Below, piece by piece: positions 49,737-55,664 of a stretch of DNA of 64,000 bases. The stretch spans positions 124,001-188,000 of the forward strand of contig JAPOZO010000056.1 in the NCBI GenBank assembly GCA_026706025.1, given 5' to 3'. Positions within the stretch are counted from its first letter, which is position 1, and every line of letters begins with the position of its first letter. A program made the position numbers and the translations under genes. The DNA comes from Candidatus Poribacteria bacterium. Lineage in GTDB: Bacteria > Poribacteria > WGA-4E > WGA-3G. The notes under the pieces are model-generated. The model searched no databases. It had not been told where the DNA came from and saw nothing but the letters and a program-made list of their open reading frames with translations.

Positions 49737-50528
49737 CTAATCACGACGTTTCTTCACTTGTCCCCACGTTGTGGCGAGTTTGTCCGCTGGTTCAACAGGC
49801 AGGAGTTTGCCGTCCATAATATCTTCAACCTCGTCGGCATCAACTGCCCTATCGTAGACATAGAGGTCATCGATATAGAACTTCGCAGAGCTATAATTCG
49901 TTTTACCGATATACATTTTCTCTGCACCTTGCGCGTGCTCTTTCGGGACACCCGGTTCCGCGACGTTTTTGCCATTGACATAGAACGTCAACTTGGCACC
50001 GTCTTTAACACCTGCGATATGATACCAGTCGCCGATTTCAAACGTATCGTTTTCTCCATCAGGACCTGCGCAGAGTGTGCCTTGGTTACCCGGGTTAAAC
50101 CGATAGTGGATGTGCAGAGGCACACGGTTACAGGTCCATATCCCGGGTGAACGGTCTGAGCCGGGTGCTTTTTTCGCGATGATTTGGTCCCAGCCGCCGG
50201 AGTTCGCCTTAGTGAAATTGAGCCAGAAGAGATAGGAGTTGTCCTGATAATCTTCTAATTCTTTGAAGGAATCGACTATCACACTGTCCCCGCCCTCGTC
50301 AAATAACATCGCGCCTTTACCGTGGACGACTTCATCGGTGACAATCTTCGCGCCATCAACTATTTCCCCATCATTTCCGCCACCGGTTTCATCTATAACC
50401 TTTCCGCCTTTCGCTGCATCGAAACTGAAGTAAAGGATTAAACCGTCGTCTTTAACAGCGGCATGTGTGGCGAGTGCGCTGCCCACCGTTAGTAGTGCAA
50501 CGACGAGTATATACATACCTAAACGCAT
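49737..50528 (-). CDS. Secreted LamG-like (concanavalin A fold) protein, copy 1
   Basis: The ATG at 50528 is chosen for AGGAGG 6 bp upstream; an ATG at 50543 overlaps that site's spacing badly. After a signal peptide (YILVVALLTVGSALATHA) comes one LamG/Laminin_G_3-like domain: DGLILYFSFDAAKGGKVIDETGGGNDGEI, YLFWLNF, GDWYHIAGVKDGAKLTFYVNGK, MYIGKTNYSSAKFYIDDLYVYDRAV. It probably binds glycans or acts as a surface lectin. Paralogue of the next LamG gene. Confidence 0.82.
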   Translation of the reverse strand: MRLGMYILVVALLTVGSALATHAAVKDDGLILYFSFDAAKGGKVIDETGGGNDGEIVDGAKIVTDEVVHGKGAMLFDEGGDSVIVDSFKELEDYQDNSYLFWLNFTKANSGGWDQIIAKKAPGSDRSPGIWTCNRVPLHIHYRFNPGNQGTLCAGPDGENDTFEIGDWYHIAGVKDGAKLTFYVNGKNVAEPGVPKEHAQGAEKMYIGKTNYSSAKFYIDDLYVYDRAVDADEVEDIMDGKLLPVEPADKLATTWGQVKKRRD

Positions 50529-50790
50529 GAGTAACCTCCTCATGTCTAAAAAAATTAATCTGCTGTGCGGACATTTTGTATTAGAGCGGCTTTTGACCGT
50601 TTTTTGAATAAAAAATGCTCGCGTCTCAACTCACAGAGGGATTTTAACAGAAACGCTTAAATCTGTCAAGAAAAAGATAAGGTCTGATTTCAGACATGGT
50701 TATTGTAGCGATGGAATAGCGGACTTTTCATGCTCAGAAAGCGAGATAAAAACTTTGATGGGTAGATATACAGAGATGGGAAAATAAATG

Positions 50791-50831: not shown

Positions 50832-51620
50832 TTAATCTTGACGTGTTTTCAGCTGTCCCCACGTTGTGGTGAGTTTGCCTTTCGGTTCAACAGGGGTGAG
50901 GTTACCCTCCATAATATTTGAGACCTCAGCAGCACTAACGGCTCTATCGTAGACATAGAGATCATCCATATAGAACTTCGCAGAGTTATAACCTGTTTGA
51001 CCGATATACAGTTTCTCAGCCCCCTGGGCATGATTTGCCGGAACCGTCTGTTCATCGACGACTTCGCCATCAATATAAAACTTGAAGCCGTCCCCTTCTT
51101 TGACACCGGCGATATGGTGCCAGTCCCCAATACCAAATTCGTCACCTTCGCCCTCAGGACCGACACAAAGGCTTCCGGCATTCCCCGGATTGAAACGGTA
51201 ATGAATATGCAAAGTTACGCGGTTACAGGTCCATATCCCGGGTGAACGGTCAGAACCGGGTGCTTTTTTGGCGATGATTTGATCCCAACCGCCAGAGTTC
51301 GCCACAATGAAATTGAGCCAGAAGAGATAGGAATTATCTGTATACTCTTCTAATGCTGGAAAGGATTCGACTGTCACACCATCACCGTTAGCATCGCATA
51401 ACAGCGACCCTTTACCGTGGACGACTTCATCGGTGGCAATTTCGGCACCCGTAATTAGACCGTCATTGCGACCACCAGTCTCGTCTATAACGAATCCGTC
51501 TTCTTCTGCATCGAAACTGAAGTAAAGGATTAAACCGTCGTCTTGAACTACGGCATGCGTGGGGATCGCACTGCCTACGGTCAACAGCGCAACGGCGCAT
51601 AGATACATGATTAAACGCAT
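50832..51620 (-). CDS. Secreted LamG-like protein, copy 2
   Basis: ATG at 51620 with AGAGG upstream; the frame opens at a TTG two codons earlier. 262 residues, signal peptide (MYLCAVALLTVGSAIPTHA) plus one LamG domain. It is closely similar to copy 1 over the whole length, including YLFWLNF-ANSGGWDQIIAKKAPGSDRSPGIWTCNRV and the ending TTWGQLKTRQD. A tandem duplication. The 210 bases between the two genes hold no other gene that I can see. Confidence 0.82.
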   Translation of the reverse strand: MRLIMYLCAVALLTVGSAIPTHAVVQDDGLILYFSFDAEEDGFVIDETGGRNDGLITGAEIATDEVVHGKGSLLCDANGDGVTVESFPALEEYTDNSYLFWLNFIVANSGGWDQIIAKKAPGSDRSPGIWTCNRVTLHIHYRFNPGNAGSLCVGPEGEGDEFGIGDWHHIAGVKEGDGFKFYIDGEVVDEQTVPANHAQGAEKLYIGQTGYNSAKFYMDDLYVYDRAVSAAEVSNIMEGNLTPVEPKGKLTTTWGQLKTRQD

Positions 51621-51831
51621 GAGCAAACCTCTTTATGTTTTAAACGAATTAAATTCTATGCAAGCCGATTGTATAAAGGGATTTTCAAACGACCCCTTTA
51701 ATGGAAAGACTCGCGTTTTTACGCAAAACAGCATTATAAAAAAAACGCTAAAATATGTCAAGAAAAATCTGCGTCTATAACTTTCTAATCTAATATCCGA
51801 TGAAAAAATAGATGATGTCTAATCTTGGATA

Positions 51832-51840
51832 TGCTATAAT
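51832..51840 (+). promoter_or_regulatory. Extended -10 promoter before the omega-RNA
   Basis: TGCTATAAT is an extended -10 element. No good -35 is seen. Transcription would start near 51847, about 14 bases before the predicted RNA scaffold. Confidence 0.45.
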
Positions 51841-51846
51841 TAAAAA

Positions 51847-52065
51847 AGGAGAGTGAAAATAGTCAATAACCCTCGAATAAATTCGGGGGCTTGTGCGAGG
51901 CGTATACCAAACGTCCACTCCACAAGGTAAACCGTTGACTACAGTAAAATATCGCAGTATCTTGGCGTGGTAGTTAGAACGACGTTTCGGATGCTCCCCA
52001 AGTCTGATTCTTCTTGGATACTGTGATCTGGAAGGGGAAACATATACCCCGTAAGGGAGAATACA
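51847..52065 (+). ncRNA. Predicted omega-RNA of the IsrB element
   Basis: The 210 bp before the IsrB gene are non-coding and structured. CCCTCGAAT and ATTCGGGGG (51870-51889) form a hairpin; GTCAA (51862) can pair with TTGAC (about 51935); a GAGG...CCACTCCAC segment follows. The layout GTCAATAACCCTCG...GGGGGCTTGTG, then AAACGTCCACTCCACAAGG and GTTGAC, resembles IscB/IsrB omega-RNA scaffolds from memory. The guide would be the ~14 bases at 51847-51860. Confidence 0.65.
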
Positions 52066-52070
52066 AACTT

Positions 52071-53099
52071 ATGTTTGTGCCTGTTAGAACCAAAGACGGA
52101 CAACAACTCATGCCACTACACGCCGCACGCGCCAGAAAACTCGTCAAGCGTGGCGAAGCAACACCCTACGTAAATAATGGCATATATTGTATCCGTCTCA
52201 ACAAAGAACCGTCTGATAGGAATACACAAGAGATTGCTGTCGGTGTTGATCCCGGTAGCAAGAAAGAAGGCTTTAGCACCAAATCGGCAGCACACACCTA
52301 CTTGAATGTGCAAGCAGACGCCCATAATCAAGTGGGTAAGAAAGTCGCAAAGCGTCGCGAGTTGCGTAGAAGTAGACGTTCACGGAAGTGTCCGAACCGC
52401 AAGCAGAGAACCAACCGTCTCGCGAACAAGCAGCGTATACCTGCTGGCACCCGCGCACGCTGGGACTGGAAACTTCGCATCCTTGATTGGTTATCAAAAC
52501 TGTTTCCTGTGACGCATGTCTGTGTTGAGGATATCAAAGCAAGAACGATAGCACATGCCAAGAAGTGGAATACCTCTTTTAGTCCACTTGAAGTTGGCAA
52601 ACAGTGGTTCTATAGCGAAATCGAAAAACGGTGGGAGTTGCTGCTGCTTCAGGGCTACGAAACGCAAGAGCTTCGTGATAAACTCGGACTCAAGAAGTCA
52701 TCGAAGAAGTCATCTGAAGACTTTGATGCACATTGTGTCGATAGTTGGTGCTTGGCACATTATACTGTCGGTGGCACCAGCAGTGTAGACAACAAAGCAG
52801 TGATGTGTATATCACCGATCCCTATAGCAAGGCGCAATCTGCATAGAGAACAATACAAAAAGGGCGGCATTCGTTCAAGATATGGGGGCACTGTGCTGTG
52901 TAAGGGTTTAGTAAAGAATACCCTTGTTAAGCATATCAAATACGGATTAACAAGGTTAGCAGGGCTCAACGCCAAAGGTTTGTTTTCTCTCTACAGTTTG
53001 GATGGAAAACGACTCACAACGGGTGCAAAACGAATGGACTTCAAAGTCCTAAGAAAACTAAACTTTAATTATAGGATCGGGCATTCCTCCCCCAGCTAA
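52071..53099 (+). CDS. IsrB: HNH-less IscB-like RNA-guided nuclease (nickase)
   Basis: 342 residues from ATG 52071, which has GGGAG upstream; the frame opens at a TTG at 52014. PLMP-type N-terminus (MFVPVRTKDGQQLMPLHAARARKLVKRGEA), RuvC-I GVDPGSKKEG (D60), an Arg-rich bridge helix (about 91-110), RuvC-II VCVEDI (E153), RuvC-III DFDAHCVDSW (219-224) and a C-terminal RNA/TAM-binding region. Only 66 residues lie between RuvC-II and III and there is no HNH, which defines IsrB rather than IscB. Known IsrB proteins nick DNA under omega-RNA guidance. All RuvC acidic residues seem present. Confidence 0.85.
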   Translation: MFVPVRTKDGQQLMPLHAARARKLVKRGEATPYVNNGIYCIRLNKEPSDRNTQEIAVGVDPGSKKEGFSTKSAAHTYLNVQADAHNQVGKKVAKRRELRRSRRSRKCPNRKQRTNRLANKQRIPAGTRARWDWKLRILDWLSKLFPVTHVCVEDIKARTIAHAKKWNTSFSPLEVGKQWFYSEIEKRWELLLLQGYETQELRDKLGLKKSSKKSSEDFDAHCVDSWCLAHYTVGGTSSVDNKAVMCISPIPIARRNLHREQYKKGGIRSRYGGTVLCKGLVKNTLVKHIKYGLTRLAGLNAKGLFSLYSLDGKRLTTGAKRMDFKVLRKLNFNYRIGHSSPS

Positions 53100-53119
53100 A
53101 GCAAGGGGTATCCTGCCCG
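53078..53119 (+). repeat. Right-end palindrome of the IsrB element
   Basis: CGGGCA (53078-53083) pairs with TGCCCG (53114-53119), and CCCC with GGGG inside, around a loop holding the IsrB stop codon. Sub-terminal hairpins of this kind mark IS200/IS605 ends. Confidence 0.65.
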
Positions 53120-53128
53120 AATATTTTG

Positions 53129-53698
53129 ATGAAGCGTTCTAATAATTCACCTATATACGTCGTTGCTATCTGTGGGAGTCTGCGGGAGGGGAGTTCAACG
53201 CATGCTGCGCTCCAAATTGCACTCTCTGGCGCGAAAGATGCGGGTGCCGAGGTCGAATTGCTTCAACTTAGTGCGTATGACCTCGTTTTTCAAGGGTCTG
53301 TCGCTAACGAAGATGACTATCCTGCTGGTGTGTTCAAACTCCGAGAAAAGGTGAAACGTGCACACGGCATACTTCTCGGCTCGCCTGAGTACCACGGCAG
53401 CTTCAGCGGTGTCCTTAAAAGTGCCCTTGACCTCATGGGGTTCGATGAATTTGAGAATAAAGTCGTCGGACTCATCGGGGTCTCCGGTGGACGGATGGGC
53501 GCAACTAACGCGCTTTCTATGTTGCGCACGGTTGGCACAGCGCTCCACGCGTGGGTCGTCCCGAAAGACGCATCTATCCCGAACTCATCTAATGCCTTTG
53601 ATGCTGAGGGTAATTTGCACGATCCTGAATTAACTGCACGCCTCAAAGCTGTAGGTAAGCAGGTTACCGAATTCGCCGCACTTCGGAATTCAGCATAA
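53129..53698 (+). CDS. NADPH-dependent FMN reductase family protein
   Basis: A flavodoxin-like fold of about 189 residues. ICGSLREGSSTHAAL binds the FMN phosphate, and ILLGSPEYHGSFSGVLKSALDLMG is the family signature. Probably reduces FMN, quinones or azo compounds with NAD(P)H. The IsrB element ends just upstream, so the original promoter may have been displaced. Start is ATG 53129 (TTG at 53126 also in frame). Confidence 0.85.
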   Translation: MKRSNNSPIYVVAICGSLREGSSTHAALQIALSGAKDAGAEVELLQLSAYDLVFQGSVANEDDYPAGVFKLREKVKRAHGILLGSPEYHGSFSGVLKSALDLMGFDEFENKVVGLIGVSGGRMGATNALSMLRTVGTALHAWVVPKDASIPNSSNAFDAEGNLHDPELTARLKAVGKQVTEFAALRNSA

Positions 53699-54506: not shown

Positions 54507-55664
54507 ATGGAAGAATTGTTTAGTATCCATTACGCCGAAGTCGGACTCAAAGGGAAAAATAGAGCATTTTTTGAAAAACGGCTTGCGAACAACATCAAAC
54601 TGTCCCTGCAAGGTACCGGATACGCTGAAGTAGAGCGGCTTCACGATAGGATTCTTGTGCATCTTGGGCAACATGCGGATATTACTGAAATTAAGGAACG
54701 TTTACGGCAAGTCATGGGCATCGCCCATTTTGAGCTTTCATGCCGTACCGAAAACAACATCGCAGCTATTAAAGAAGCGGCATTGCGGCAAATCCAAGAG
54801 GCTTCTTACGAATCCCTGAAAGTTGAAACCAGGCGAGCAGACAAAACCTTTCCACTAACTTCCCCGGAGGTGAGTGCCGAGGTCGGTGGGTATCTCATCA
54901 AGGAAACAGGTGCTCGGGCTGATATGCATAACCCCGACCTTACCTGCTGGATTAAAATAACACACAACGCTGCGTATATCTCCGCAGAGAAGATTCAAGG
55001 GATCGGTGGTTTGCCAGTCGGTGTGAGCGGTAAGGTACTCGTCATGTTGTCCGGTGGGATTGACTCCCCCGTCGCTGCATGGCAAATGATCAAACGTGGC
55101 GCGAAAGCCGTTTTTATTCACTTTTATAGTTACCCATATACGGATAAGGCTTCTCTGGAGAAGGTCATCGAAATTGCGCAGATCTTAGCGGTATCCAACT
55201 ATCGTAGCACCCTCTATCTCGTTCCGTTTGCAGATCTCCAGCAGACGATTGTCACCGCAACGCCAGCACCGTTCCGGGTTGTGTTGTATCGGCGGATGAT
55301 GACGCGCATCGCACAGCGCGTCGCCACTATGGTTGATGCTGAGGCTCTCGTTACGGGGGAAAGTCTCGCACAGGTGGCTTCGCAGACGTTGACGAATCTC
55401 CGAACGATTGAAGCGATTGCCGAAATCCCTATCCTGCGCCCACTTATCGGAGAGGACAAGGCTGAGATAATTACAAAAGCACAACGGATAGGGACCTTTG
55501 ATGTGTCTATACGTCCACATCAGGACTGTTGCTCACTCTTTGTGCCTAAGCATCCTGCCACGCGGGCATCGCTTACCGAGTTGGAAGATGCAGAATCAGA
55601 GCTGGATATAGATACATTGGTTGAAGACGCACTGAATAACCTTGAAAAACAGGTAGTAGAATAG
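54507..55664 (+). CDS. thiI: tRNA 4-thiouridine synthase
   Basis: Makes s4U at tRNA position 8 and supplies sulfur for thiazole. The N-terminal ferredoxin-like plus THUMP domain covers about residues 1-165 (YAEVGLKGKNRAFFEKRL). The PP-loop ATPase follows: VMLSGGIDSPVAAWQMIKRG, and GESLAQVASQTLTNL, RPHQDCCSLFVPKHP. There is no C-terminal rhodanese domain, as in many non-enterobacterial ThiI. A repeat element starts right at its stop codon. Confidence 0.95.
   Translation: MEELFSIHYAEVGLKGKNRAFFEKRLANNIKLSLQGTGYAEVERLHDRILVHLGQHADITEIKERLRQVMGIAHFELSCRTENNIAAIKEAALRQIQEASYESLKVETRRADKTFPLTSPEVSAEVGGYLIKETGARADMHNPDLTCWIKITHNAAYISAEKIQGIGGLPVGVSGKVLVMLSGGIDSPVAAWQMIKRGAKAVFIHFYSYPYTDKASLEKVIEIAQILAVSNYRSTLYLVPFADLQQTIVTATPAPFRVVLYRRMMTRIAQRVATMVDAEALVTGESLAQVASQTLTNLRTIEAIAEIPILRPLIGEDKAEIITKAQRIGTFDVSIRPHQDCCSLFVPKHPATRASLTELEDAESELDIDTLVEDALNNLEKQVVE

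What the first reader, a model, noticed from the sequence alone, without database searches (positions are those of the whole stretch)
51832..53125. Complete IsrB locus with omega-RNA and a readable native guide
The IsrB protein keeps RuvC acidic residues and lacks HNH. A structured 210-base region precedes it and an extended -10 promoter lies 14 bases before the scaffold, so the natural guide should be about 51847-51860. TnpA is missing, which leaves open whether the RNA-guided nickase is stranded or has been kept by the host.
Basis: partly seen in the sequence, partly recalled or inferred. Interest (0 to 1): 0.7.

Follow-up and report, generated by a model that had tools for sequence, protein, structure and literature searches.

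The report
Nickase transposon parked at start codon
This is a small jumping gene that carries an RNA-guided DNA-nicking protein and sits exactly between a bacterial gene's promoter and its first codon, so that the gene's own leader RNA would become the element's guide; its relatives sit at gene starts far more often than expected, while sister elements with the same ends do not.

Summary
The locus is real: a complete IsrB element, window 51862-53128 (1,267 bp), in a Poribacteria-type genome. The omega-RNA scaffold starts at 51862 and isrB is 52071-53099. The native guide is therefore the host gene's 5' leader, about 51847-51861. The element is neither stranded nor clearly host-kept: a 99.3% copy lies elsewhere in the genome.

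The surprise is family-wide. Of 95 IsrB insertions at [AG]TGA, 55 lie at gene-start-like codons, against 507 of 5,816 control sites. TnpB elements with the same right end show no excess (open frames of 60+ codons at the border: 9/39, background 24%; IsrB 63/95). Hosts include a single-copy glutaminyl-tRNA synthetase. Two TAM-reading residues covary with the flanking bases (R/Q with G3/A3; R with G4), including an expected ATAG-QR class.

Not shown: RNA, nicking, translation from behind the element, or what causes the bias (selection for a host promoter, or targeting).

The parts
51862..53128 (+). complete IsrB element, 1,267 bp
   Evidence: 99.3% second copy in own genome; seamless empty sites in three close orthologs
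51832..51840 (+). extended -10 (TGCTATAAT): promoter of the downstream FMN-reductase gene, now driving the element
   Evidence: same box at about the same distance in the empty sites L147, L149 and (with one change) L150; transcription start is inferred
51847..51861 (+). predicted native guide = host leader (15 nt from the inferred start; 20 nt would be 51842-51861), with Shine-Dalgarno AAGGAG 51846-51851
   Evidence: left flank of the element; same leader in empty sites
51862..52064 (+). omega-RNA scaffold
   Evidence: HEARO 1-211, E 0.023; covariation in 36 copies
52071..53099 (+). isrB, 342 aa; catalytic motifs D in GVDPGS, E in VCVED, D in DAHCVDS; TAM-reading R314 and T317
53073..53076 (+). 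SD-like AGGA (AGGAG in most copies) directly 5' of the right-end hairpin, overlapping the isrB 3' end
53078..53119 (+). right-end hairpin (presumed TnpA-binding); isrB stop lies within it
   Evidence: fold; conserved in family
53120..53128 (+). AATATTTTG spacer, element end
   Evidence: family spacer of 6-10 nt in 106 of 113 copies with a stem; border
53129..53132 (+). ATGA: host start codon, acting as target-adjacent motif
   Evidence: empty sites; DtIsrB TAM is NTGA (PMC9581776, passages read)
53129..53698 (+). host gene, NADPH-dependent FMN reductase, intact
   Evidence: Pfam FMN_red 1.1e-37; close orthologs 95-97% identical
50832..51626 (-). divergent neighbour, LamG-type lectin domain protein
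   Evidence: Pfam Laminin_G_3

Best explanation
Window 51862-53128 is a recently mobile, non-autonomous IS200/IS605-type OMEGA element of the IsrB kind, inserted exactly between the leader and the ATG of an FMN-reductase gene (shown). The host promoter would now transcribe leader, omega-RNA, isrB and host gene in that order; the leader is the guide and the start codon ATGA is the TAM (guide and TAM positions shown by empty sites; transcription inferred). IsrB with this guide would nick the empty allele and favour keeping the element (inferred from the known IsrB nickase and from guide-directed retention in related elements, the latter recalled). Members of this family sit at gene starts far more often than chance and more often than TnpB elements with the same right end (shown). 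I think this is because an IsrB element needs a host promoter just upstream to make a guide, and because the host gene can still be translated from behind the right end, either through the AGGAG next to the end hairpin or by re-initiation after the isrB stop (inferred).
For: Empty sites at three genes: FMN reductase (L147, L149, L150), thiI (the window's own thiI at 54507 is the empty form of L095), glnS (L333). Start-like borders 55/95 against 507/5,816 controls, P 1e-32; start-like plus SD 32/95 against 93/5,816. ORF classes start/intergenic/inside 51/39/21 against 158/884/5,033. All six full-length copies in the own genome lie before ORFs of 189-503 codons. Second sample, 11 insertions from another genus and 4 from one more genome of the same genus: 5/15, P 0.007. 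TnpB control, same right end: 9/39 against IsrB 63/95 for ORF>=60, P 5e-6; ATGA only 7/25 against 59/86, P 3e-4. Downstream genes carry intact N-terminal domains, including glutaminyl-tRNA synthetase with one full-length copy in the genome. TAM residues: ATGA R+Q/T 93/98, GTGA R+T 9/9, ATAA Q+L/F 6/7, ATGG R+R 9/10, ATAG Q+R 3/3. Cyanobacterial plasmid IsrBs: right end meets an annotated start exactly in 3 of 6 loci read.
Against: 39 of 111 insertions were classed intergenic and 21 inside ORFs. The AGGAG by the hairpin is equally kept in TnpB elements (34/39), so it may serve end recognition and not translation. At glnS (L006) the -10 abuts the border, so that promoter could not transcribe a guide. 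The -10 excess over control starts is weak (20/58 against 17/93, P 0.03). Gene starts were called from ORFs, not from annotation. HEARO scores are below gathering. No RNA, nicking or translation data exist here. TAM switches are few independent events on the tree.
Confidence: 0.72

Rival explanations
1. Purifying selection alone: a TnpA inserts at any ATGA, insertions in genes are lost, and those before a start codon survive because they happen to be harmless. The IsrB guide plays no part.
For: Insertion needs only [AG]TGA; intergenic insertions exist (39 of 111).
Against: Among non-coding sites starts are still over-represented (51 start: 39 intergenic against 158: 884). TnpB elements with the same ends and motif are not enriched (9/39), although the same harm filter applies to them.
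Confidence: 0.35
2. The RNA-guided nickase has been kept by the host as a regulator, as with nuclease-dead TnpB-like repressors (recalled).
For: Guide equals a gene leader; IsrB is intact with conserved catalytic motifs.
Against: The target in this genome is split by the element itself; the next best sites have 3 mismatches. Copies move, few insertions were seen shared between genomes (L120/L135; glnS in G000 and G015), and catalytic residues are kept, not lost.
Confidence: 0.05
3. AGGAG beside the right-end hairpin is part of the transposase binding end and has no role in translation; downstream genes are translated only by re-initiation or poorly.
For: AGGAG is kept in TnpB elements too (34/39).
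Against: The Arg codon there is AGG in 81 of 88 copies against 458 of 3,780 overall, which either constraint explains. It is kept in front of genes that should be essential, ribosomal protein L15 (L363) and the glnS remnant (L335), with 6-10 nt between stem and ATG in most copies.
Confidence: 0.45

Closest known systems
IsrB of Desulfovirgula thermocuniculi (DtIsrB, PDB 8dmb; PMC9581776, passages read)
   Same: Protein aligns over its whole length; no HNH; omega-RNA lies 5' of the gene; NTGA TAM; R323 and Q326 read TAM bases 3 and 4.
   Different: Start-codon insertion and leader-as-guide are not described in the passages I read. Here Q326 is often T, and natural R-to-Q and Q-to-R changes go with A3 and G4.
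HEARO RNA / IscB omega-RNA (Rfam RF02033)
   Same: Position, strand and full-length alignment.
   Different: Scores 23-33 bits against a gathering score of 83; no HNH protein.
IS200/IS605 TnpB elements of the same genomes
   Same: Same right-end hairpin, AGGAG, GAAGATT and [AG]TGA border.
   Different: tnpB is antisense to the border, and there is no excess of start codons (9/39).
IStrons (PMC4227781, abstract in search listing only)
   Same: A transposon that makes its insertion harmless to the host gene.
   Different: IStrons splice out of RNA; here the element sits outside the coding frame.
Borrelia IS605B stem loops (PMC2775950, passages read)
   Same: IS605 end hairpins found outside the intact element, next to genes.

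Membership tests
IsrB (OMEGA nickase) | IscB-type RuvC with RRXRR bridge region, no HNH, about 350 aa | tested here: met
IsrB (OMEGA nickase) | structured omega-RNA directly upstream, guide at its 5' end | tested here: met
   for structure; guide position from borders; RNA itself not seen
IsrB (OMEGA nickase) | NTGA-type TAM 3' of the target | tested here: met
   empty site is guide-ATGA; residue-base covariation
IsrB (OMEGA nickase) | RNA-guided nicking of the non-target strand | not testable with these tools
   biochemistry needed
IS200/IS605 superfamily | insertion without target duplication, next to a fixed short motif, hairpin ends | tested here: met
   seamless empty sites; ATGA (TCAT on the other strand) at the border; right-end hairpin
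IS200/IS605 superfamily | encodes or uses a Y1 transposase TnpA | tested here: inconclusive
   none in the element; five Y1 genes in the genome without convincing matching ends
IscB | HNH nuclease domain | tested here: not met
TnpB-like repressor (TldR) | loss of catalytic residues and a conserved target away from the element (recalled) | tested here: not met
   catalytic motifs conserved; no good second target in own genome

The most novel reading that the evidence does not exclude
IsrB itself steers the element to gene starts. Guides copied from one gene's leader (SD, A-rich stretch, ATGA) partly match many other leaders, so the IsrB-omega-RNA complex opens or nicks leader-ATGA sites elsewhere and exposes the strand that the transposase cuts. 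The element would then be an RNA-guided, start-codon-seeking transposon whose NTG(A/G) TAM is the start codon, with TnpB elements that share its ends lacking this bias.
Probability: 0.15. Interest if true: 0.9.

Novelty: new variant of a known kind. Interest (0 to 1): 0.72.

Why it matters
IsrB is taken as the likely forerunner of IscB and, through it, of Cas9 (PMC9581776, passages), yet what its guides are in nature and why its TAM is NTGA have had no genomic answer that I found. Here the guides are gene leaders and the TAM is a start codon, with dozens of natural replicates and an internal control (TnpB elements with the same ends). The residue-base pairs at positions 314/317 give a natural TAM code that can be tested directly and could help choose IsrB or IscB variants as tools. 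It also makes a concrete question testable: does an RNA-guided nickase shape where its transposon lands, or only which copies survive?

Tried and rejected
Rejected: (1) element border at 51832/53125 as given; the exact ends are 51862/53128. (2) Promoter as part of the element; it is in the empty sites. (3) My own early idea that AGGAG at the right end is an IsrB-specific ribosome site: TnpB elements keep it as well, so I now hold it only as a possible by-product. (4) A TnpA partner in the own genome: no convincing matching ends near the five Y1 genes. (5) Two near-threshold RNA hits, L13-Bacteroidia in the window and HgcC in two loci: taken as chance.

Dropped before counts: of the copies listed I fetched full-length ones only. 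117 loci were oriented, one being the window copy twice (L036), leaving 116. L142 had no right border at the time (115); L051, L056 and L066 have no left flank; L135 is the same insertion as L120; so 111 enter. 16 borders that are not [AG]TGA are left out of the 95. Several borders were set by hand after reading the sequence. In the second sample L324 had no clear border (15 of 16 used); L325 and L326 were fetched but not analysed, since these insertions were already in the first sample. In the TnpB control 26 loci gave no right end and 10 of 49 borders were not [AG]TGA. Of the cyanobacterial loci, six were read for borders; L297, L298 and L299 were fetched but their borders not worked out. 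Literature: searches returned nothing on start-codon insertion of IsrB or IscB elements that I could see; most subscription papers are not in that library.

Full report
WHAT IS THERE. The ORF at 52071-53099 (342 aa) is an IsrB: Pfam RRXRR only, no HNH, IscB model below its cut-off, best solved relative DtIsrB over nearly its whole length. The stretch before it matches HEARO RNA full length from 51862 to 52064, sub-threshold. Thirty-six scaffolds from relatives show 20 of 31 predicted pairs with changes on both sides, and the same weak HEARO match falls on the scaffold of 6 of 10 other IsrB loci. Named relatives found by protein search are all Candidatus Poribacteria (80 of 80 loci kept).

EXACT BORDERS AND THE EMPTY SITE. 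The own genome (6.27 Mb) holds a copy 99.3% identical over 1,267 bp at C52, plus further diverged copies and end fragments. All 38 genomes searched in the genus have the FMN-reductase gene. Of the 30 loci returned, one is the window and two are cut at contig ends; none of the other 27 shows the element in the up to 90 bases before the ATG. Three of them (L147, L149, L150) share the window's promoter and leader, and the leader runs straight into the ATG. The window's own thiI (54507) is in turn the empty form of an insertion seen in L095, and glnS gives a third empty site (L333).

THE GUIDE. The base before the scaffold is 51861. With the inferred start near 51847 the guide is a 15-nt leader that carries the host's Shine-Dalgarno; DtIsrB uses a 20-nt duplex (PMC9581776, passages), which would be 51842-51861. 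The TAM of the empty site is the start codon ATGA. In the own genome the guide plus NTGA finds its own locus (1 mismatch, because the element replaces the TAM) and eight sites with 3 mismatches, against two hits for the reversed control pattern.

START CODONS ACROSS THE FAMILY. I collected full-length copies from the own genome, relatives in its genus and one genome of another genus, G047. In 115 with a right border, ATG comes first in 94 and NTGA in 98. In 111 non-redundant insertions, 95 have [AG]TGA; 55 of these open a start-like frame (60 codons or more, no in-frame start further than 20 codons upstream), against 507 of 5,816 [AG]TGA sites in the surrounding host DNA. With an SD as well it is 32 of 95 against 93 of 5,816. 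A cruder gene call gives 51 start, 39 intergenic, 21 inside for insertions and 158, 884, 5,033 for controls. In the own genome all six full-length copies precede ORFs of 189 to 503 codons; a seventh, decayed copy (L007) does not fit. A second sample of 15 insertions, 11 from another genus of the family and 4 from one further genome of the same genus, gives 5 start-like (P 0.007), weaker than the first. Six cyanobacterial plasmid loci with about 30-52% identical IsrBs were read: in three (Leptolyngbya, Stanieria, Dolichospermum) the right end meets an annotated start exactly, in one (Calothrix) it lies a few bases before it, in two it does not.

A NATURAL CONTROL. Searching with the right end alone found many ends without isrB. 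Of 40 fetched, 23 belong to elements with tnpB on the opposite strand, 15 are solo or mini ends and 2 are isrB remnants. With TnpB loci from two more searches, 39 non-redundant TnpB borders at [AG]TGA give 9 ORFs of 60 codons or more, the background rate (1,397 of 5,816), against 63 of 95 for IsrB (P 5e-6). For ATGA alone it is 7 of 25 against 59 of 86 (the 7 of 25 counted by hand from the rows). The solo or mini ends resemble IsrB: 10 of 15. So the association goes with IsrB, not with the shared end or the motif.

THE HOST GENES STAY WHOLE. Downstream genes have intact N-terminal domains, among them PurD, a RimK-like ligase, several enolase-superfamily enzymes, PEP carboxykinase and glycine cleavage H; of 19 IsrB hosts scanned, 17 had a Pfam match and two had none. 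In the own genome one copy precedes glutaminyl-tRNA synthetase, which has no second full-length copy there; a relative (L328) shares that insertion, and another (L335) has a different right end at the same ATG. A solo end precedes ribosomal protein L15 (L363). Such genes should have to be translated from behind the right end. Its anatomy would allow this: AGGAG, a hairpin, then 6-10 nt in 106 of 113 copies, then the ATG; the isrB stop lies 25-31 nt before the ATG in 99 of 113. The Arg codon that supplies AGG is AGG in 81 of 88 copies, against 458 of 3,780 over the gene. Against reading this as a ribosome site made for the purpose: TnpB elements keep the same AGGAG (34 of 39), so end recognition is enough to explain it.

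THE TAM CODE. In DtIsrB, R323 reads base 3 and Q326 base 4 of the TAM, and Q326R tolerates G4 (PMC9581776, passages). The matching residues here are 314 and 317. By the bases that follow each element: ATGA has R with Q or T in 93 of 98; GTGA R and T in 9 of 9; ATAA Q with L or F in 6 of 7; ATGG R and R in 9 of 10. I expected Q and R for the ATAG borders before tabulating them, and found them in 3 of 3. The tree shows only a few switches: 5 changes at TAM base 3 with 4 at residue 314, and 5 at base 4 with 3 at residue 317. This ties IsrB to the site in which its own element sits.

MOBILITY. Copies identical over their whole length at different sites within one genome (L077/L078/L079; L085/L086) and the 99.3% pair in the own genome mean recent movement. 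No TnpA is in the element; five Y1 genes in the genome lack convincing matching ends, so the partner is not identified.

HOW IT MOST LIKELY WORKS. Shown: borders, empty sites, guide and TAM positions, start-codon excess, TnpB contrast, residue-base covariation. Inferred: transcription from the host promoter, nicking of the empty allele, retention of the element, translation of the host gene behind the end. The cause of the excess is open. I favour survival of copies that have a host promoter directly upstream to make a guide; a weak excess of -10 boxes (20 of 58 against 17 of 93, P 0.03) points that way, while equal rates of a close upstream ORF (15 of 58 against 22 of 93) do not distinguish. 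Steering by IsrB itself is not excluded.

NOVELTY. The protein and RNA are members of a known kind. The start-codon habit, leader-as-guide and natural TAM code did not appear in the literature I could search.

Noticed in passing
L008 (G000:C52, around 322304-322418): Miniature element of about 0.36 kb with left end, omega-RNA and right end but no isrB, lying before a 137-codon ORF: a possible guide RNA served by IsrB in trans.
   Followed up: partly
L335 (G016:C55) and L006 (G000:C43): Two different right ends at the very same ATG of glnS in different genomes, i.e. apparently independent insertions at one start codon.
   Followed up: partly
L357-L396: TnpB elements share the IsrB elements' right end in opposite orientation, so one transposase may move both; many carry TGTCAA, the complement of a -35 box, beside the AGGAG.
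   Followed up: partly
L363 (G005:C1, 118787-118846): A solo right end sits directly before the ATG of ribosomal protein L15.
   Followed up: partly
window 49737-50543 and 50832-51626: Two similar LamG-type genes in tandem on the minus strand next to the element.
   Followed up: no
L315, L319, L320: IsrB lineage with ATAG borders and Q314/R317, a TAM class expected from the residues.
   Followed up: yes
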